64,000 nucleotides of DNA from Secundilactobacillus angelensis (GTDB taxonomy: Bacteria; Bacillota; Bacilli; Lactobacillales; Lactobacillaceae): assembly GCF_012641075.1 (NCBI RefSeq), contig NZ_JAAXLJ010000001.1, forward strand, positions 62,001 to 126,000, read 5' to 3'. Position 1 is the stretch's first letter. Every line of letters begins with the position of its first letter. Positions 18,054-25,913 of the stretch are shown here, one piece after another. The notes under the pieces are model-generated. The model was given only the letters and a program-made list of their open reading frames with translations, did no database searches and was not told the origin of the DNA. The translations under genes and the position numbers were made by a program.

Positions 18054-18296
18054 AATAATCTGTGTGAAAGTGTAAACGATACAAAAAAATATTCATTTAA
18101 ATTGTGCAAAATCAAATTAAGCCTTATATAAGCTAGCAATGCCCAGTATATCAACCTCATAAGAAAATATAATGGCTTGGTAAGCGTTTGACTATAACGG
18201 AAAACAGGAAGTATTGTACAGTTGTTAGTGAATAACATCACTAAACGATACTTGTTGGTAGTATACATTATTCACAAATCAATGGAGGTCAAAACA

Positions 18297-19682
18297 ATGG
18301 CAGATTACAGAATTGAATCAGATACGATTGGTGAAGTTAAGATCCCTTCTAACGCACTCTGGGGTGCTCAAACTGAAAGAAGTCGTAACAACTTCCCAAC
18401 TGGTGAAAAAATGCCGCTTGAGATTATCAAAGCGTTATTACAGATCAAGAAAGCTGCAGCTACCGCTAATAAAGAATTAAAGAACATTGATGGTGCCAAA
18501 GCAGACTTGATTGTCGAAGCAATCGATACGCTGCTTGCACTTGACGATGAAGACTTGCGTAAAGATTTCCCACTGGTTGTGTACCAAACTGGTTCAGGTA
18601 CTCAAACCAACATGAACGTCAACGAAGTCGTTGCTCACCAAGCAGCTAAAATCAATGCTGACATTGAAATCTTACCTAATGATGATGTTAACAAGGGTCA
18701 AAGTTCTAATGATATCTTCCCAACGGCCATGAACATTACCGCTGCTAAGGCTGTTAGCCATTTGGAAGAATCAACTCAACACTTAATTGATGAATTAAAA
18801 GTTAAACAAGAAAAATACTGGAAGACCGTTAAGATTGGCCGGACCCACTTACAAGATGCAACACCATTAACCTTTGGCCAAGAAGTTTCTGGCTGGGTCA
18901 GTGCTTTGGAACATGATTTGGATTACCTGCAAACGTTAGGTAAGACACTGAGTGAATTAGCAATGGGTGGTACCGCTGTTGGTACTGGTTTAAACGCCGC
19001 ACCTGGTTTTGCTGGTATTATTGCTGACAAGATGGGCGAAGTGTACGACCTACACTTTACTGCTGACACCAACAAATTCTATGGCTTGGCTCACCACTCA
19101 GGCTTAAATGTCGTCCACGGTGCTATCAAGACGTTAGCTGCCGATTTGATGAAGATTGCTAACGATGTTCGTTTCTTAGCTTCTGGTCCTCGTGCCGGTT
19201 ACGGTGAATTGAACATTCCTGCTAACGAACCTGGTTCTTCAATCATGCCTGGTAAGGTTAACCCAACTCAAGCTGAAGCCATCACCATGGCCGCTGTTCG
19301 GGTAATGGGTAACGATGTAGTCGTTGACCTAGCTTCAAGCCAAGGTAACTTTGAAATGAACGTTTACAAGCCAGTTCTGATTTCTGCTTTCCTTGAATCA
19401 GCTGAATTACTTGAAGGTACGATGCGTGGCTTTGCCGACAAGATGATTCACGGTCTGTCTGTTAACTCAGAACGGATGGAAGAATTAGTTGACCGTTCAT
19501 TAATGACTGTTACTGCATTATCACCACACATTGGCTATCACGAAAGTGCCACTATTGCTCAAGAAGCATTAAAGGAAGGTACTTTACTGAAGGAAGCTGC
19601 TTTGAAGTCTGGCTTGCTGACAGAAGAAGAGTACGACAAGTGGGTTGTGCCGATTAACATGACTAACATCGATCAAAAGTAA
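18297..19682 (+). CDS. fumC: Fumarate hydratase class II
   Basis: Interconverts malate and fumarate. 461 residues, the family's normal length, with the superfamily signature GSSIMPGKVNPTQ and the substrate-site segments SGTQTNMNVNEV and KIGRTHLQDATP. ATG at 18297 preceded by GGAGG; an upstream in-frame TTG (18222) lies before that site and is not used. It is followed by a fumarate reductase flavoprotein and a dicarboxylate transporter, so the trio likely imports malate or a related acid, dehydrates it and reduces fumarate to succinate as an electron sink. Confidence 0.97.
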   Translation: MADYRIESDTIGEVKIPSNALWGAQTERSRNNFPTGEKMPLEIIKALLQIKKAAATANKELKNIDGAKADLIVEAIDTLLALDDEDLRKDFPLVVYQTGSGTQTNMNVNEVVAHQAAKINADIEILPNDDVNKGQSSNDIFPTAMNITAAKAVSHLEESTQHLIDELKVKQEKYWKTVKIGRTHLQDATPLTFGQEVSGWVSALEHDLDYLQTLGKTLSELAMGGTAVGTGLNAAPGFAGIIADKMGEVYDLHFTADTNKFYGLAHHSGLNVVHGAIKTLAADLMKIANDVRFLASGPRAGYGELNIPANEPGSSIMPGKVNPTQAEAITMAAVRVMGNDVVVDLASSQGNFEMNVYKPVLISAFLESAELLEGTMRGFADKMIHGLSVNSERMEELVDRSLMTVTALSPHIGYHESATIAQEALKEGTLLKEAALKSGLLTEEEYDKWVVPINMTNIDQK

Positions 19683-19723
19683 ATTAAACACAGTGATACA
19701 CAATTAAGAATAGGAGTAATAAC

Positions 19724-21121
19724 ATGGCTGAAAAATTTCATTTCCAACCAACCCCACTCACACGATTACGCAAGCACTATGATGTGATTGTGATTGGTTC
19801 TGGCGCAGCTGGTATGACGGCCGCCATTCAGGCACATGAGCTAGGCCTGTCACCAGTTATCCTTGAAAAAATGGACAAATTGGGTGGTAACACTAACCGG
19901 GCTTCATCAGGGATGAACGCCGCCGAAACTAATGTCCAATTAAAGCATCACGTGGTCGATAGTTTCCAAGAATTCTACGATGAAACTTTAAAGGGTGGCG
20001 GTGGCCAAAACAACACCGAACTACTGAAGTACTTCTCTGAACACGCTGCTTTAGCCATTGACTGGTTGGCTGATCATGATATTCAATTGGATGAAATCAC
20101 GATCACGGGTGGGATGAGTAAGATGCGGACTCACCGGCCCCACTCATTGGCTGCAATTGGCGGGTTCCTGGTTACTGAATTGTTGAAGCAAGTTCAAAAA
20201 GCCCGTATTCCACTATTCTCTGGTTTAAAGGTCACCGAGCTAACTACAGATGATGACGGTAAGGTCACCGGTGTGCGTGCCACAACTGGTAAGCAAAGCG
20301 GTCCATTGACCGCGGATGCTGTTATTCTGGCCGCTGGTGGTTTCGGTGCTAACCAAGACATGCTGGCAAAGTATCGTCCTGATTTAAAGGGCATGGAGAC
20401 GACTAACCAACCAGGCGCAACTGGTGATGGCATCAAGCTGGCTCAAGCGTTAGGTGCAAAACTAGTCGATATGGATCAGGTTCAAGTCCACCCAACAGTT
20501 CAGCAAGATACACCACATGCTTACCTGATTGGTGAAGCGGTTCGTGGCGAAGGTGCCATCTTAGTTAATAAGCATGGTGACCGTTTTGTGAACGAATTGG
20601 ATACCCGTAAGAACGTTACTGCAGCAATTGATGGTTTAAACGAGAACGGTGCTTACCTGATCTTTGATCAGGGCATCCGCGACCGTGCCAAGGCCGTTGA
20701 ATTTTACGATTCAATTGGTTTAGTTCACACTGGTCAATCACTGGATGATTTGGCTAGTCAGCTCGGGTTTGATGCTGCTACGTTGAAGCAGACTGTTAGC
20801 GACTGGAATACCGCCGTTGCTGACCAAAACGATTCAGCCTTTAACCGAACCACAGGGATGGATCGAGACATTTCAACAGCACCATTCTTCGCCATTCACA
20901 TTGCACCAGCCATCCATTACACAATGGGTGGGATTGCCATCAATCATAAGACTGAAGTGCTTAACGAAGATGGTAAAGCAATCAAGGGTCTTTATGCTGC
21001 TGGTGAAATTGTTGGGGGGCTTCACGGGAATAACCGAATTGGCGGTAATTCAATCGCTGAAACAGTTATCTTTGGTCGTCAAGCCGGTGAACAAGTATTC
21101 AACTACATTAATGAAAAATAA
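19724..21121 (+). CDS. Soluble fumarate reductase-type flavoprotein
   Basis: 465 residues. FAD-binding GxGxxG at residues 25-30 (VIVIGSGAAGMTAA) preceded by a strand; GGNTNRASSGMNAAE, MRTHRPH and the active-site segment VRGEGAILVNKHGDRFVNE are typical of fumarate reductase / flavocytochrome c type FAD proteins. The C-terminal GGNSIAETVIFGRQAG closes the FAD domain. There is no FMN-binding domain, heme site or signal peptide, so it is a cytoplasmic single-domain reductase. It lies 41 bp after fumC and 27 bp before the transporter. Related reductases for other enoates exist, but the context favours fumarate. Confidence 0.92.
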   Translation: MAEKFHFQPTPLTRLRKHYDVIVIGSGAAGMTAAIQAHELGLSPVILEKMDKLGGNTNRASSGMNAAETNVQLKHHVVDSFQEFYDETLKGGGGQNNTELLKYFSEHAALAIDWLADHDIQLDEITITGGMSKMRTHRPHSLAAIGGFLVTELLKQVQKARIPLFSGLKVTELTTDDDGKVTGVRATTGKQSGPLTADAVILAAGGFGANQDMLAKYRPDLKGMETTNQPGATGDGIKLAQALGAKLVDMDQVQVHPTVQQDTPHAYLIGEAVRGEGAILVNKHGDRFVNELDTRKNVTAAIDGLNENGAYLIFDQGIRDRAKAVEFYDSIGLVHTGQSLDDLASQLGFDAATLKQTVSDWNTAVADQNDSAFNRTTGMDRDISTAPFFAIHIAPAIHYTMGGIAINHKTEVLNEDGKAIKGLYAAGEIVGGLHGNNRIGGNSIAETVIFGRQAGEQVFNYINEK

Positions 21122-21148
21122 TGCATTTTATATAGGAGAGCATGGAAA

Positions 21149-22567
21149 ATGACACTCAATAAGGTTAATTATAAGAAATTTATCTTGCCGATAGTGGTCG
21201 GCTTGATTATCTGGTTCTTGGCACCAATTAAGCCAGCTGCTGTTTCACTTGTAGCCTGGCATATGTTAGCTATTTTTATCGCAACTATTCTTGCATGTAT
21301 TACTCAACCCTTGCCTATCGCAGGGTCAGCACTTATTGGAATTACTTTATCCGTTTTGCTTGGCGTTGTTAAGATGGAAGACGCGGCTTCAGGTTTTGGG
21401 AACGACACTGTTTGGATGATTGGGATGGCATACTTCCTGTCACGTGGATTTATCAACACGGGTCTGGGGCGTCGAATTGCATTGATTTTCGTCCGTCTAT
21501 TTGGTAAACGAACACTGGGCTTATCATACGCCTTGATTGGTGTGGATCTGGTTACTGCGCCAGCTACACCAAGTAACACTGCTCGTGCCGGTGGGATTGT
21601 TATGCCTATCATCGAATCTCTATCTGAGACTTTTGGTTCATCACCTAAAGATGGTACGCAAAGCAAGATTGGTTCATACCTGATGTTTACTGAATTCCAT
21701 GGTGACATTATCACTTCTGGTATGTTTATGACTGCTATGGCACCTAACTTGGTTGCCGTTGCTTTAGCTAAAGGGATGCACGTTCAGATTTCATGGATGG
21801 GCTGGTTCATTGCCGCACTTGTTCCTGGTATTATTTGCTTGCTCTTGGTTCCATGGTTGATTTACAAGATGTATCCACCAGAAATCAAGGAAACACCAAA
21901 TGCCAAAGAATGGGCTGACAAAGAGTTAGCCGAAATGGGTAAAATGTCGTTGCCTGAAAAGATCATGGCTTCAGTTTTCGTTGTTGCCTTGCTTCTCTGG
22001 ATGATTTCTAGTTTTATTGGTTTGGAAGCTTCTACGGTTGCGTTCTTAGCCGTTGTCTTACTGCTATTGACTGGCGTTTTAAGCACTAAGGATATTTTGA
22101 ATGAAACTGGTGCATGGAACACGATTATTTGGTTCTCAATTCTGATCTTCATGGCCAACGAATTAAACGTTTTAGGCTTTATTCCTTGGTTATCAAAGGC
22201 CTTGGGTACAAGTCTTCACGGTATGAGTTGGGAAATTGTCCTGGTGGTATTGGTTCTGTTCTACTTCTACAGCCATTACTTATTTGCATCAGGTACTGCG
22301 CACGTTACTGCAATGTACGGTGCTTTGTTGGCCGTTGCTATTTCAGCTGGTGCACCAGCAACCTTTGCGGCTATGATTTTAGGTTTCACCGGAGCAATCT
22401 TCGGTTCAACTACTCAATATGCTAACGGTCCTGCTTCAGCATTGTTCGGTGCTGGTTATAACAAGCAGAGCGACTGGTGGCGTTTGAACTTCGTCTTGGG
22501 CCTGGTTTACATCGTTATTTGGGGCGGTGTTGGTTCACTCTGGATGAAAGTTCTCGGTATGTGGTAA
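21149..22567 (+). CDS. DASS family dicarboxylate transporter
   Basis: 472 residues with about 12 hydrophobic helices. The sequence (PLPIAGSALIGITLSVLLGV; VTAPATPSNTARAGGIVMPI; the C-terminal ASGTAHVTAMYGAL) matches the divalent anion:sodium symporter / CitT-like antiporter family, with two SNT/T-rich substrate motifs. It is the last gene of the fumC - fumarate reductase - transporter operon, fitting malate, fumarate or citrate uptake with succinate export. ATG 21149 with AGGAGAG upstream. Terminator follows at 22590. Confidence 0.92.
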   Translation: MTLNKVNYKKFILPIVVGLIIWFLAPIKPAAVSLVAWHMLAIFIATILACITQPLPIAGSALIGITLSVLLGVVKMEDAASGFGNDTVWMIGMAYFLSRGFINTGLGRRIALIFVRLFGKRTLGLSYALIGVDLVTAPATPSNTARAGGIVMPIIESLSETFGSSPKDGTQSKIGSYLMFTEFHGDIITSGMFMTAMAPNLVAVALAKGMHVQISWMGWFIAALVPGIICLLLVPWLIYKMYPPEIKETPNAKEWADKELAEMGKMSLPEKIMASVFVVALLLWMISSFIGLEASTVAFLAVVLLLLTGVLSTKDILNETGAWNTIIWFSILIFMANELNVLGFIPWLSKALGTSLHGMSWEIVLVVLVLFYFYSHYLFASGTAHVTAMYGALLAVAISAGAPATFAAMILGFTGAIFGSTTQYANGPASALFGAGYNKQSDWWRLNFVLGLVYIVIWGGVGSLWMKVLGMW

Positions 22568-22589
22568 AAACGAATTTAATTTAGATACT

Positions 22590-22626
22590 AAAAGTTGCAC
22601 TTGCTAACTAAGCAGGCGCAACTTTT
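22590..22626 (+). terminator. Terminator of the fumarate operon
   Basis: AAAAGTTGC / GCAACTTTTT stem with a 19-nt apical part. Confidence 0.85.
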
Positions 22627-22674
22627 TAATTTGTGATAAGCTATGGTGAATGATCTATTCTAAGGAGCATTAGG

Positions 22675-23574
22675 ATGAACACGAAAGACTTAGCTTATTT
22701 TAAAGCATTGGTTGAAAAGCGAAATTTCACGGCTGTCGCAAAGGCCTTTAACGTCTCACAGCCCACTGTTACGCAGGCAGTTAAACGTCTAGAACGGGAA
22801 TTCGAAGACGAACTCGTTCACGTTGATCGCGCACACAATCGAACTGAAATCACGCGGTCAGGATTATTACTCTACGAAAAAGCTAGCACAGTGGCTGCTA
22901 GCCTCAATTTAGCTCATCAAGAGATCGAAAACGCCAAATTATCACGAATCAGGTTTGGCTTACCACCCATTATCGGCACATTGTACTTTCCCGCACTAGC
23001 TGGTCAGCTGCTAAAAGACGGCCTACTACAGCGGTTAGACCTGGTAGAGACTGGGTCTGGTGGCCTGCTAAGCGCCGTCAAAGAAGGAGAAATCGATATT
23101 GCCCTATTGGCTTCGGTGTTACCGTTGCACGATCCCTCGCTGAACGTGATTCACATTGGAAGCCGGCCATTTGTGGCGGTAGTTAGTCGTCGCCATCGGT
23201 TGGCTAATCGAGGGAGTGTTTTCTTTAAAGAGTTAGCCAACGAAGAGTTCATTATGCTGAACCGCAAGTTTGTTCATCCTAAAGCGTTCAAAGCATACAG
23301 CCAATTTGCCGGTGTCAATCCCCCGGTCATTTATCGGACCCCAGATATCTCGTGGATTACGAGTTTAGTTAAGGAAAACTTAGGTGTCAGTTTATTGGTT
23401 CGCGACGTCGTGAGCTCTAGTGATGAATCAGAGCTATCCTGCTTGCAAATTTTGGATCCCGTTGCTGAACGGTTTAACGTCTCGATTGTCATTCGTCAAG
23501 GTTACGTATTGACGGCAGAAGAGAAGCATTTTATTGAGGAACTAAAGCAGTTAAAGATCCCGCAAAGTCAGTAA
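22675..23574 (+). CDS. LysR family transcriptional regulator
   Basis: 299 residues. The N-terminal HTH (MNTKDLAYFKALVEKRNFTAVAKAFNVSQPTVTQAVKRLE) and the LysR substrate-binding domain from about residue 90 are clear. It lies directly downstream of the fumarate operon in the same direction and resembles MleR-type regulators of malate metabolism in lactic acid bacteria. It probably responds to a dicarboxylate and activates the fumC operon; the T-N11-A operator was not located with confidence. AAGGAG upstream of ATG. Confidence 0.93.
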   Translation: MNTKDLAYFKALVEKRNFTAVAKAFNVSQPTVTQAVKRLEREFEDELVHVDRAHNRTEITRSGLLLYEKASTVAASLNLAHQEIENAKLSRIRFGLPPIIGTLYFPALAGQLLKDGLLQRLDLVETGSGGLLSAVKEGEIDIALLASVLPLHDPSLNVIHIGSRPFVAVVSRRHRLANRGSVFFKELANEEFIMLNRKFVHPKAFKAYSQFAGVNPPVIYRTPDISWITSLVKENLGVSLLVRDVVSSSDESELSCLQILDPVAERFNVSIVIRQGYVLTAEEKHFIEELKQLKIPQSQ

Positions 23575-23580
23575 ATAGAG

Positions 23581-23617
23581 AAAAAAACGAATTTCCGATG
23601 TCGGAAATTCGTTTTTT
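23581..23617. terminator. Bidirectional terminator
   Basis: AAAAAAACGAATTTCCGA / TCGGAAATTCGTTTTTT stem between lysR and the convergent Doc-like gene. Confidence 0.92.
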
Positions 23618-23634
23618 AGTAGTGTGCCTATCGC

Positions 23635-24018
23635 CTATTTTTGTTTTAAATGACTGTTGAAAATGACGAATAGATCGGTGGCACCAACTTCATGCTGGTT
23701 AACACGTTTGACCAGATTAATCAGTTCATCATCAGTGAAAGTTAGCTGATAATCGTTTAAATCAGCTAGCGCCGCCACAGCAACAGCGGCTGTTTGCAGA
23801 TTCATGTGCACAAATGGTTTTCCTGAAATAATTGAATCCATCAGGAAACCGGTTTTATTCGCTACCATTTCATGTAAGCTTTGATCGTAAAAATTAGATT
23901 GCGGAACAGCAATGATTTTATCAAGTTGTTCCGCATTCTTGATACCAGGTTGTTGACCAGCCCTAATAGCGAGGCGACTATTAATGGCGGCTAATTCGTC
24001 AGCTGTTAGATAACGCAT
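23635..24018 (-). CDS. Doc-like (Fic fold) protein with degenerate catalytic motif
   Basis: 127 residues, the length of Doc (death-on-curing) toxins, which phosphorylate EF-Tu. The N-terminus (MRYLTADELAAINSRLAIRAGQQPG...NAEQLDKII) aligns well with Doc. Where Doc has H-x-F-x-D-x-N-K-R-T-A, this protein reads KPFVHMNLQTA: the catalytic His, the Asp and the Lys-Arg pair are replaced, with only Phe, Asn and Thr-Ala kept. It is therefore unlikely to be an active kinase or AMPylator. The ATG overlaps the antitoxin stop (TAATG) and AGGAGG lies within the antitoxin gene, so translation is coupled. Confidence 0.82.
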   Translation of the reverse strand: MRYLTADELAAINSRLAIRAGQQPGIKNAEQLDKIIAVPQSNFYDQSLHEMVANKTGFLMDSIISGKPFVHMNLQTAAVAVAALADLNDYQLTFTDDELINLVKRVNQHEVGATDLFVIFNSHLKQK

Positions 24019-24236
24019 TACTTGCCTCCTATTTGATTCAATGCACTTTCAAATTGATCGATGACAGTTTCCATACTTTGGAAAAATTGTGCATCGAGCT
24101 GAGTGTCGTTTCGGAAAGAGACGTCAATTTCGTCGCCTTTTTGGACCGCTAATTTCCGAGCAATATTTGCTGGGATTGTAATTGCTAATGAATTGCCAAC
24201 TTGAATGATTTGGCGTTGTGATTTAATTTCATTCAT
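24018..24236 (-). CDS. AbrB/MazE-like antitoxin
   Basis: 72 residues. SQRQIIQVGNSLAITIPANIARKLAVQKGDEIDVSF is a SpoVT-AbrB swapped-hairpin DNA-binding domain of the MazE type; the C-terminal acidic amphipathic part should contact the partner. It overlaps the Doc-like gene by one base. A minus-strand promoter lies at 24292-24320. The ribosome binding site is weak (AAAGGA, 14 nt away). Expected to repress its own operon. It pairs an AbrB-type antitoxin with a Doc-type partner, rather than the classic Phd. Confidence 0.85.
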   Translation of the reverse strand: MNEIKSQRQIIQVGNSLAITIPANIARKLAVQKGDEIDVSFRNDTQLDAQFFQSMETVIDQFESALNQIGGK

Positions 24237-24291
24237 GAGTCCAAATTTATCCTTTCGTTATAACAAATTCATGATTTCTTAGAAGTAGTAT

Positions 24292-24320
24292 AGCATATTT
24301 GGTCTATCCAATCATGGCAA
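24292..24320 (-). promoter_or_regulatory. Promoter of the AbrB-Doc pair
   Basis: On the minus strand TTGCCA, 17-bp spacer, TATGCT, with the leader to the antitoxin ATG about 50 nt long. Confidence 0.55.
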
Positions 24321-24338
24321 AATAGTCAGGTTGCTTTA

Positions 24339-24372
24339 ATATTCCAATATAATATTAGTGGCATTGGAATAT
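24339..24372. promoter_or_regulatory. Perfect 10-bp dyad, likely operator
   Basis: ATATTCCAAT, 14-bp spacer, ATTGGAATAT, with a further half-site AATATTGGAAAT at 24389-24400. It lies between the divergent TA pair and leu operon; either could be the target. Confidence 0.5.
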
Positions 24373-24498
24373 ATTTCTGAGAGAAAAGAATATTGGAAAT
24401 TGCTGTATCTTTTCTATTCCTTTGAGGACGGCAAGCCAGGTAATTATTAGGGAAAATAGTTGTCAGGAATATTAGAAAACGGTTTGTCAGCTCTCATT

Positions 24499-24522
24499 TG
24501 GTATGCTAGTGTGTGAGCATAC
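24499..24522 (+). promoter_or_regulatory. Extended -10 promoter and dyad of the leu operon
   Basis: TGGTATGCT is an extended -10 element. It overlaps the inverted repeat GTATGCT (24501-24507) and AGCATAC (24516-24522), which could be an operator over the start point. Confidence 0.5.
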
Positions 24523-24555
24523 TAAAAACGACAAAGAGATAAGGAGGTACATCTG

Positions 24556-24618
24556 ATGACTGTTCAATTCAATAACAACTCAACACTTGCAACCTCTTTA
24601 TTAGCCTTATTATTATGA
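24556..24618 (+). CDS. leuL: Leucine-rich leader peptide of the leu operon
   Basis: A 20-codon ORF with AAGGAGG 9 nt upstream of ATG. Five of the last six residues are leucine, all TTA codons, then TGA. It is followed by a hairpin (24623-24650) and a strong terminator (24680-24717). This is the layout of a translation-coupled attenuator: scarce Leu-tRNA stalls the ribosome at the TTA run and allows readthrough into leuA. The peptide itself is not expected to have another function. Confidence 0.88.
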   Translation: MTVQFNNNSTLATSLLALLL

Positions 24619-24622
24619 CCTA

Positions 24623-24717
24623 GGATTTGACAATGTAACACGTCAAGTCCTGTTTGCGTTATGGAATGGGGCTTGTCGAAACAACACCCCATTCAATGCG
24701 AATGGGGTGTTGTTTTT
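24623..24717 (+). terminator. Leucine attenuator: pause hairpin, antiterminator and terminator
   Basis: Hairpin 1: GGATTTGAC / GTCAAGTCC (24623-24650). Terminator: AACACCCCATTC / GAATGGGGTGTT then TTTTT (24680-24717). The upstream GAATGGGG (24663-24670) can pair with CCCCATTC (24687-24694) instead, giving the antiterminator. Confidence 0.88.
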
Positions 24718-24749
24718 GGTTAAAACTCAAATTTGAAGGGATGATTATT

Positions 24750-25913
24750 ATGAGTAAACAGATTCAGTTTTTTGATACCACGCTTCGCGATGGTGAACAG
24801 ACAATTAGCGTCAACTTCAGTATTGATGAGAAAGTTGCAATTGCAAAACAGCTTGAAGCATGGGGTGTTGATGTAATCGAAGCAGGATTTCCAGTAGCTT
24901 CTAAGGGCGATTTTGAAGCGGTTCAAGCAGTTTCACGTGCCGTGAAGAAGGCCTGCGTTACTGGTTTGGCGCGAGCCCGAAAAGGTGATATTGATGCCTG
25001 TGTAAAGGCGACTGCAGATGCCGTACATAAACAAGTTCATGTCTTCATTGCAACCAGTCCCATTCACCGTGACTCCAAATTACATATGACGAAGCAAGAA
25101 GTCATTGATACCATTACCGACTGCGTGTCATACGCGCATCAGTTCTTCGATATCGTGGAATTTTCACCAGAAGATGCCACTCGAACAGAACCCGACTTCC
25201 TGGTTGAATCAATCAACGCGGCAACGGCTGCAGGAGCAACCGTGATCAACATTCCGGATACGGTGGGTTACACCAATCCAGCTGAATTCGCAGCGCTCTT
25301 TAAGAACCTTCGCGAAAACGTCAACGATTTTGATAAGTACACCTTTTCAGTGCACTGTCACGATGATCTTGGTATGGCGGTTGCTAACAGCCTTGCTTCC
25401 ATTGAAAACGGTGCTACTCGAATTGAAGGGACCATCAACGGAATCGGTGAACGGGCCGGCAACGCAGCGTTGGAAGAAGTTGCCGCAGCAATGTACGTTC
25501 GCAAGGATTACTACGATGCGACGAACAACATTAATATGAAAGAAACCAAGCGTACCAGTGACATGATCAGCAAATTTGCTAAGATGCCGGTACCGCATAA
25601 TAAGGCCGTAGTTGGGGCGAACGCATTTGCTCACGAATCTGGGATTCACCAAGACGGCATGCTGAAGAATCCGCAAACTTACGAGATCCTAACTCCTGAA
25701 TGCGTTGGCGCTCATAAGACCACGTTGCCACTTGGTAAGCTTTCCGGCTCACATGCCGTGATGACTAAGCTAAATGAGATGGGTTACGAGGTTAACCGCG
25801 ATGATATGAAGGTTATTTTCCCACACTTTAAAGACAGGGCGGATCATACCGACATTGTTTCTGACGATGATCTTCGAGTGATTATGAACAAATTTAGTGA
25901 GGTGAGCGCATAA
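24750..25913 (+). CDS. leuA: 2-isopropylmalate synthase lacking the regulatory domain
   Basis: First committed step of leucine synthesis: acetyl-CoA plus 2-ketoisovalerate. 387 residues. The catalytic TIM barrel is complete (FFDTTLRDGEQTISVNFS; FSVHCHDDLGMAVANSL with the metal HxH-type residues; GERAGNAALEEV) and the linker subdomain follows (HESGIHQDGMLKNPQTYEIL). The protein ends where the C-terminal leucine-binding domain of about 120 residues would begin in the usual 510-residue enzyme. Start ATG 24750 with GAAGGG upstream; the ATG at 24741 is too close to it. Overlaps leuB by one base. Confidence 0.95.
   Translation: MSKQIQFFDTTLRDGEQTISVNFSIDEKVAIAKQLEAWGVDVIEAGFPVASKGDFEAVQAVSRAVKKACVTGLARARKGDIDACVKATADAVHKQVHVFIATSPIHRDSKLHMTKQEVIDTITDCVSYAHQFFDIVEFSPEDATRTEPDFLVESINAATAAGATVINIPDTVGYTNPAEFAALFKNLRENVNDFDKYTFSVHCHDDLGMAVANSLASIENGATRIEGTINGIGERAGNAALEEVAAAMYVRKDYYDATNNINMKETKRTSDMISKFAKMPVPHNKAVVGANAFAHESGIHQDGMLKNPQTYEILTPECVGAHKTTLPLGKLSGSHAVMTKLNEMGYEVNRDDMKVIFPHFKDRADHTDIVSDDDLRVIMNKFSEVSA

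What the first reader, a model, noticed from the sequence alone, without database searches (positions are those of the whole stretch)
23635..24236. Doc-type partner with lost catalytic motif, paired with an AbrB/MazE antitoxin
The protein aligns along its length with Doc, but the H-x-F-x-D-x-N-K-R core reads KPFVHMNLQ: His, Asp, Lys and Arg are all replaced. The gene is otherwise intact, translationally coupled to its antitoxin (TAATG overlap) and has a good ribosome binding site, so it is not simply decaying. It may have become a co-repressor or acquired a different activity.
Basis: partly seen in the sequence, partly recalled or inferred. Interest (0 to 1): 0.6.

Follow-up and report, generated by a model that had tools for sequence, protein, structure and literature searches.

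The report
Conserved inactive Doc toxin beside AbrB
A bacterial gene descended from a growth-stopping toxin has lost its catalytic residues, yet a group of silage and food lactobacilli has kept it, together with its antitoxin partner and control site, so it probably now works as a regulator or has a new job rather than being a broken leftover.

Summary
Window 23635-24018 (-) is a 127-aa Doc homologue whose Fic/Doc core reads KPFVHMNLQ; it overlaps an AbrB/MazE-type gene (24018-24236) by TAATG. It is not recent decay: both genes have orthologues in 11 of 15 Secundilactobacillus genomes, all 11 with GKPFxxxN[LY]QTA. The 11 form one clade on a long stem among Docs that keep NKR. Since then the protein has been constrained: 51 of 127 positions are invariant, and dN/dS is 0.08 in the only pair with dS below 1. 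The AbrB gene and an 11-bp operator candidate (TTGTTATAACG, between the -10 box and the ribosome-binding site) are kept in all 11. The extended operator matches exactly at the pair in each carrier and is absent from the 4 non-carriers. AlphaFold gives a Doc fold (Z 17.3 to P1 Doc). Most likely this is a pseudotoxin kept as regulatory partner of an AbrB autorepressor; a new pocket function or an anti-addiction role is not excluded. Inactive co-repressing toxins (Salmonella CcdB) and Docs with other motif changes are known. A Doc with this motif, fixed by descent, was not found in the searches made. New variant of a known kind.

The parts
23635..24018 (-). pseudo-Doc: 127-aa Doc-fold protein without the HxFx(D/N)(A/G)NKR motif
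   Evidence: ORF; TIGR01550 35.1 bits; AF2 best model pLDDT 89.8, pTM 0.84; Z 17.3 to P1 Doc H66Y, 120 residues, rmsd 2.1; orthologue in 11 of 15 genus genomes
23794..23820 (-). codons 67-75, KPFVHMNLQ, in place of the HxFxDxNKR core
   Evidence: K67, P68, F69, N73 and Q75 invariant in 11 of 11; position 71 (the metal Asp) is H, N, S, T or D
24018..24236 (-). AbrB/MazE-type antitoxin-like protein, 72 aa, MNEIKSQRQIIQVGNSLAITIPA...
   Evidence: Pfam MazE_antitoxin 34.8 bits over cut-off 24.7; orthologue next to pseudo-Doc in 11 of 15 genus genomes
24025..24030 (-). AGGAGG ribosome-binding site of pseudo-Doc; stop and start codons overlap as TAATG
   Evidence: sequence; overlap of 1 base in 10 of 11 loci, 0 in S. 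folii
24252..24266 (-). operator candidate TTGTTATAACGAAAG with palindrome GTTATAAC (24257-24264), between the -10 box and the antitoxin start, overlapping the ribosome-binding site
   Evidence: 11-bp invariant run TTGTTATAACG in 11 of 11 loci, 0 of 10000 column shuffles as long (shuffles ignore relatedness); one exact match, at the pair, in each of 11 carriers and none in 4 non-carriers
24287..24295 (-). extended -10 box TGCTATACT, read by eye
   Evidence: largely conserved in the upstream alignment; the consensus scan places a promoter-like site at 24320-24292, and its 3 sites in the region are no more than chance gives (4.1)
23582..23617 (-). terminator-like hairpin after pseudo-Doc, between it and the convergent LysR gene
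   Evidence: 16-pair stem (1 found, 0.7 expected by chance)

Best explanation
The pair descends from a composite MazE-Doc (TasAB-type) toxin-antitoxin operon whose toxin lost its kinase site in an ancestor of most Secundilactobacillus species. It was then kept as a non-toxic two-protein regulatory unit. Proposed working: an AbrB-fold dimer binds the single palindrome TTGTTATAACG between the -10 box and the ribosome-binding site and represses its own operon; pseudo-Doc captures the antitoxin's C-terminal helix and tunes that repression according to the ratio of the two proteins. Whether it strengthens repression (co-repressor, as inactive CcdB of Salmonella plasmid pSLT) or releases it (as the E. 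faecalis complex, which did not bind DNA) is open. Shown here by computation: homology, predicted fold, loss of the motif, one clade for the changed form, inheritance with the species, selective constraint, conserved operator candidate and partner. Inferred: lack of toxicity, complex formation, DNA binding, and the benefit to the cell.
For: Orthologues of both genes in the same 11 of 15 genus genomes, adjacent in all 11. Changed motif in 11 of 11, with synonymous diversity under it: Gly66 by all four codons, Pro68 by three, Thr76 by three. rpoB DNA tree, rooted at the midpoint only: G004, G005 and G008 fall outside the group that holds all carriers; the fourth non-carrier, G009, is sister to carrier G001. 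Doc tree: the 11 are one clade (100/100) inside a group with 14 Docs that keep NKR (97/87; 98/89 with the motif columns removed), on a stem of 1.27 or 1.06 changes per site. Among 8 intact pairs (of 19 fetched) the toxin is more conserved than the antitoxin (mean 52.5 vs 42.4%; 26 of 28 comparisons); between 7 of the 11 pseudo-Doc pairs and those 8 the toxin falls to the antitoxin's level (33.1 vs 34.5%; toxin higher in 20 of 56). dN 0.038, dS 0.488 for silagei/hailunensis. Operator core invariant in 11 of 11, its exact extended form only at the pair, and GTTATAAC also near the antitoxin start of 4 of 19 NKR-bearing relatives. The antitoxin keeps a C-terminal helix like that of an intact relative: 46% identity over 72 aa between S. 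similis and the partner of L032; the window's own antitoxin is 36% identical to it. Doc fold predicted. Precedents: PMC5065971 (passages) and PMC13034048 (abstract, passages, sections 13 and 16).
Against: No binding, DNA or toxicity data. The operator has no conserved second target, so a pure autoregulatory loop would have no visible output and the benefit is unexplained. The E. faecalis complex did not bind DNA (PMC13034048), which argues against the co-repressor form. Conservation of K67 and Q75 at the old active site is more than a scaffold strictly needs. dS is saturated or not computable for most species pairs, so dN/dS rests mainly on one pair. Long stems also occur for intact Streptococcus Docs (1.13) and for another degenerate Doc pair (0.94-1.0), so stem length alone proves nothing.
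Confidence: 0.5

Rival explanations
1. Pseudo-Doc has gained a different activity: the pocket rebuilt around K67, N73 and Q75 binds another ligand or catalyses another reaction, and the AbrB protein still restrains it.
For: G66, K67, P68, F69, N73, Q75, T76 and A77 are invariant in 11 of 11 while the metal-Asp position varies. Precedents: AvrB has the Fido fold without the motif and is crystallised with UDP and RIN4 T166-Rha (title; PMC2686095 passages); Doc clade D2 with Gln for His and Fic clade F6 without a conserved motif (PMC4454073 passages); degenerate Fic2 of C. fetus, which keeps its toxicity (PMC5651007 passages).
Against: His, metal ligand, Lys and Arg are all gone; Asn73, T76 and A77 are also conserved in intact Docs and may be structural; the protein is a bare Doc domain of 127 aa with no added domain.
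Confidence: 0.23
2. Anti-addiction unit: the AbrB protein, or mixed dimers with pseudo-Doc, neutralises related active MazE-Doc systems that arrive on mobile elements, so the pair protects the host.
For: Relatives with the NKR core share GTTATAAC near the antitoxin start in 4 of 19 loci and a similar antitoxin helix; antitoxin binding dimerises E. faecalis Doc (PMC13034048, section 13), so mixed dimers are thinkable; none of the six genus paralogues matched and read is of the L032 type (tree).
Against: Plasmid and phage collections hold only distant relatives (4 and 2 records, 23-33% identity); identity of the window protein to the intact Docs compared is 23-38%, so cross-neutralisation is doubtful; other intact Docs coexist in the genus with different antitoxins.
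Confidence: 0.15
3. Still a toxin: growth arrest by another route or weak residual kinase activity.
For: Operon form, overlap and operator are those of a toxin-antitoxin pair; incomplete loss of activity after a His to Ala change is reported for the Fic protein IbpA (PMC4454073 passage); degenerate Fic2 is toxic (PMC5651007).
Against: P1 Doc loses toxicity on mutation of the motif His (PMC2686095 passage); here Asp, Lys and Arg are gone too.
Confidence: 0.07
4. Slow decay: the pair persists by chance.
For: Absent from 4 of 15 genomes, among them G009, which groups with a carrier.
Against: Constraint on both proteins and the operator, and no stop inside any of the 11 frames; G009 is 91% complete with 8% contamination and a broken rpoB, so its absence is weak evidence.
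Confidence: 0.05

Closest known systems
TasA-TasB / composite MazE-Doc family (B. thuringiensis pGI1; PMC1626090, passages read)
   Same: Upstream MazE/AbrB-like antitoxin with a GNS motif, overlapping stop and start codons, Doc-like downstream protein
   Different: Family motif H(x)5NKR(x)8F(x)3N is lost here (K67, N73-L74-Q75, L84); TasB is toxic in E. coli, this protein is predicted not to be
Enterococcus faecalis Phd-Doc, PDB 9VZC (PMC13034048)
   Same: Best sequence match among solved structures (E 3.7e-8); AbrB-like antitoxin; a single palindromic operator near the promoter
   Different: E. faecalis Doc keeps the HxFx(D/N)(A/G)NKR motif (HCFYNANKR) and kinase activity
P1 Doc (3DD7, 3K33)
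   Same: Whole-length fold match, Z 17.3
   Different: Phd has another fold than the AbrB-like antitoxins; P1 Doc is an EF-Tu kinase with the motif (PMC4177925 passages)
Inactive CcdB of Salmonella plasmid pSLT (PMC5065971, passages read)
   Same: Inactive toxin kept with its antitoxin, regulating transcription
   Different: One substitution, on a plasmid, with downstream genes under its control; here four catalytic residues, chromosomal contigs, clade-wide, two genes then a terminator-like site
Doc clade D2 (Qx[FY]x[DE][GV]NKR) and Fic clade F6 without a conserved motif (PMC4454073, passages read)
   Same: Fic/Doc groups with natural loss of catalytic residues
   Different: D2 keeps Asp/Glu and NKR; the K-x5-N[LY]Q form is not among the five motif groups quoted there

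Membership tests
Doc kinase toxins (TIGR01550) | Doc fold | tested here: met
   AF2 best model pLDDT 89.8; Z 17.3 over 120 residues to 3dd7
Doc kinase toxins (TIGR01550) | HxFx(D/N)(A/G)NKR motif | tested here: not met
   KPFVHMNLQ; changed in 11 of 11 orthologues
Doc kinase toxins (TIGR01550) | Curated score of at least 38.65 bits | tested here: not met
   35.1 bits for the window protein; 4 of 11 orthologues do pass in the genome search, 39.0-40.8 bits
Doc kinase toxins (TIGR01550) | Growth arrest and EF-Tu phosphorylation | not testable with these tools
   needs an experiment
TasAB / composite MazE-Doc | MazE/AbrB-like antitoxin upstream, overlapping start and stop codons | tested here: met
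   MazE_antitoxin over cut-off; 1-base overlap in 10 of 11 loci, 0 in 1
TasAB / composite MazE-Doc | TasB motif H(x)5NKR(x)8F(x)3N | tested here: not met
   K67, N73-L74-Q75, L84, N88: only the two Asn remain; motif as given in PMC1626090
doc_partner antitoxin (TIGR02609) | Curated score of at least 55.9 bits | tested here: not met
   37.7 bits
Inactive toxin acting as transcriptional regulator (CcdB-pSLT type) | Toxin-antitoxin complex controls the operon promoter | tested here: inconclusive
   operator candidate and both genes conserved; binding not testable here

The most novel reading that the evidence does not exclude
A toxin-fold protein was converted in one ancestor into a non-toxic protein with a rebuilt pocket (invariant K67, N73, Q75) that senses a ligand and, through its former antitoxin, turns that into a transcriptional or other response: a toxin-antitoxin pair turned sensor and regulator.
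Probability: 0.15. Interest if true: 0.78.

Novelty: new variant of a known kind. Interest (0 to 1): 0.5.

Why it matters
What chromosomal toxin-antitoxin pairs are for is a long argument. Here is a natural experiment in which the catalytic site has been removed but the operon, operator and partner have been kept through the divergence of 11 species. If the pair has a measurable function, that function is unlikely to be toxicity, which makes 'regulation without poisoning' directly testable in harmless silage lactobacilli. It also warns that annotation as a 'death-on-curing toxin' from family similarity alone is unsafe.

Tried and rejected
Recent decay: rejected.

Regulon: the exact operator TTGTTATAACGRAAG occurs once per carrier genome, at the pair. 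With one mismatch allowed two further sites appeared (one each in G012 and G013), in different sequence contexts and not shared between genomes; the reversed control pattern gave 14 chance matches in the 15 genomes at that stringency. A conserved regulon at this stringency is not supported; looser sites were not tested.

Link to the leu operon: leuA is divergent from the pair in 7 of 11 carrier loci. G006 and G007 keep the pair with no leuB match at E 1e-60, and G001 and G013 have leuB on another contig. So the link looks like neighbourhood, not function.

Link to the fumarate/LysR cluster: at least one of its genes lies within the fetched flanks of 10 of 11 carrier loci, but the cluster also exists in G005 and G008, which lack the pair.

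Mobile origin: 4 plasmid and 2 phage records, all distant. A pattern-seeded scan of IMG/VR with the pseudo-Doc alignment found no relative.

Pseudo-Doc outside the genus: I read 19 loci from the family search (best matches; 48 non-genus genomes had a match), 11 further loci from the order search, 4 Streptococcus loci and 9 viral loci, 43 in all. All 43 keep NKR; the His is Tyr in L050 and Arg in L142; none has K-x5-N[LY]Q. Matches whose loci were not fetched were not read.

Structured RNA in 23500-24800: none at Rfam gathering scores.

Literature: seven searches bearing on novelty (listings, of which one search showed 15 of 35 papers) listed no paper on this pair or this motif. Only the open-licence library was searched. 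A further search (15 of 58 shown) served the mechanism. P1 Doc kinase papers PMC3836179 and PMC3953291 are not held.

First rpoB protein tree was discarded because a wrong frame was taken for G009; the DNA tree replaces it. One search read the loci without their strands and was replaced.

Full report
WHAT IS THERE. The window lies in a Secundilactobacillus genome: orthologues at 55-83% identity were found in ten named Secundilactobacillus species. Two ORFs on the minus strand form an operon: an AbrB/MazE-like gene (24018-24236) and a Doc-like gene (23635-24018), overlapping by one base (TAATG), with AGGAGG before the second. A terminator-like hairpin at 23582-23617 follows, before a convergent LysR gene, so the operon appears to hold these two genes only. 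On the other side a leucine-rich leader and the leu genes run the opposite way.

IDENTITY. The second protein matches Doc (TIGR01550, E 1.2e-8) but falls below the curated cut-off, and Pfam sees no Fic domain. Among solved structures its family profile finds E. faecalis Doc 9vzc (E 3.7e-8), then P1 Doc weakly (E 0.08 and 0.22). AlphaFold2 on 15 sequences gives pLDDT 89.8 and pTM 0.84 for the best model; the other four were less confident (69-80). Foldseek and VIA-align put P1 Doc first (Z 17.3, 120 residues, rmsd 2.1), far above other Fic proteins at Z below 10.

THE MOTIF. The alignments to 9vzc and 3k33 have no gap inside the core. K67 stands for the catalytic His, H71 for the Asp/Asn, L74 for the Lys that marks Doc kinases (PMC4177925 passages) and Q75 for the Arg; Phe and Asn stay. 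In 11 of 11 orthologues positions 66-69, 73 and 75-77 read GKPF, N and QTA without exception, while position 71 is H, N, S, T or D and position 74 is L or, once, Y. The codons under these residues vary synonymously, so it is the protein that is conserved, not just the DNA.

DISTRIBUTION AND ORIGIN. Orthologues of both genes occur together in 11 of 15 genus genomes (one search's tally of 12 includes a paralogue in G005). In the rpoB DNA tree, which has no outgroup and is rooted at the midpoint only, three non-carriers (G004, G005, G008) fall outside the group that holds all carriers. The fourth (G009) is the sister of carrier G001, in an incomplete, frameshift-ridden assembly. The branch that unites the 12 has support 81/94. 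A single gain or fixation with one loss or gap fits; other histories are not excluded. A tree of 39 Doc proteins places the 11 as one clade (100/100) in a group with 14 Docs that keep NKR. With the motif columns removed it stays there (98/89) on a stem of 1.06 changes per site, against 1.27 with them; intact Streptococcus Docs have a similar stem (1.13). Of 43 loci read from other genera and viral contigs, all keep NKR and none shows the K-x5-N[LY]Q form; further matches were not fetched. No plasmid or phage record in the collections searched holds a close relative.

CONSTRAINT. Between silagei and hailunensis, the only pair with toxin dS below 1, dN/dS is 0.078 for pseudo-Doc and 0.072 for the antitoxin; most other pairs are saturated in dS or not computable. 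Among eight intact relatives (of 19 fetched) the toxin is the better conserved partner (52.5 vs 42.4% mean identity, 26 of 28 comparisons). Between seven of the 11 pseudo-Doc pairs and those eight the advantage is gone (33.1 vs 34.5%, toxin higher in 20 of 56). The comparisons are not independent, but they suggest that the change fell mainly on the toxin and was followed by new constraint.

CONTROL SITE. Upstream DNA is largely unalignable across the 11 loci except a -10-like box and the block TTGTTATAACG(A/G)AAGG. The 11-bp run TTGTTATAACG is invariant; none of 10000 column shuffles gave so long a run, though shuffling ignores relatedness. TTGTTATAACGRAAG has one exact match in each carrier, at the pair; the four non-carriers have none even with one mismatch. 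The reversed control pattern, with one mismatch, gave 14 matches over the 15 genomes, so it is the exactness and place of the matches, not their number, that count. Part of the block is the ribosome-binding site, whose conservation is expected; the palindrome GTTATAAC is not. The same core lies near the antitoxin start of 4 of 19 relatives with NKR (L032, L034, L036, L037), which suggests that the operator is older than the loss of the motif.

HOW IT MOST LIKELY WORKS. In the E. faecalis system the AbrB-like antitoxin binds one palindrome with its N-terminal domain, its C-terminal helix sits in Doc, and the full complex did not bind DNA (PMC13034048; abstract, passages and sections 13 and 16 read). 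The Secundilactobacillus antitoxins keep the GNS-bearing N-terminal half and a C-terminal helix similar to that of an intact relative. I infer that pseudo-Doc still binds that helix and so sets the level of free AbrB repressor. Inactive CcdB of pSLT does the comparable thing with one substitution (PMC5065971, passages read). What the cell gains is not shown: the operator has no second conserved target, and neighbouring genes are not consistently linked. That gap is why the new-activity rival keeps real weight, helped by the invariant K67, N73 and Q75 and by AvrB, a Fido-fold protein without the motif.

WHAT IS KNOWN AND WHAT IS NEW. Composite MazE-Doc operons (TasAB, PMC1626090, passages), Fic/Doc groups with other motif changes (PMC4454073, passages), degenerate but toxic Fic2 (PMC5651007, passages) and inactive regulatory toxins (PMC5065971, passages) are in print. 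A Doc without His, Asp, Lys and Arg, kept across a clade with operator and partner, was not listed by the searches made. It fails the motif test for Doc kinase toxins and for TasB, so it is not filed as either; it is a homologue that has probably left the family's function. Verdict: a real, conserved, probably non-toxic derivative; interest 0.5.

Noticed in passing
24556-24618 (+), hairpin about 24681-24717: Short ORF MTVQFNNNSTLATSLLALLL (6 Leu of 20) upstream of leuA, followed by a GC-rich hairpin and T run read by eye: a likely leucine attenuator leader for the leu genes.
   Followed up: no
   Followed up: partly
L050 and L142: Doc relatives with Tyr (L050) or Arg (L142, viral contig) in place of the catalytic His but NKR kept.
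   Followed up: no
18222-23574 (+): Fumarase/aspartase-like lyase, flavocytochrome c, DASS anion symporter and LysR regulator in a row; genes of it also found together in two genomes without the pair: looks like a fumarate or malate use cluster.
   Followed up: partly
24300-24480, both strands: Repeated GGAATAT/AATATTCC-like elements in the region between the pair and the leu leader, partly conserved in species with adjacent leuA (by eye): possible binding sites of a leu regulator.
   Followed up: no
G009 and G013 assemblies: rpoB is broken into several frames in both, so gene absence in these two should not be trusted.
   Followed up: partly
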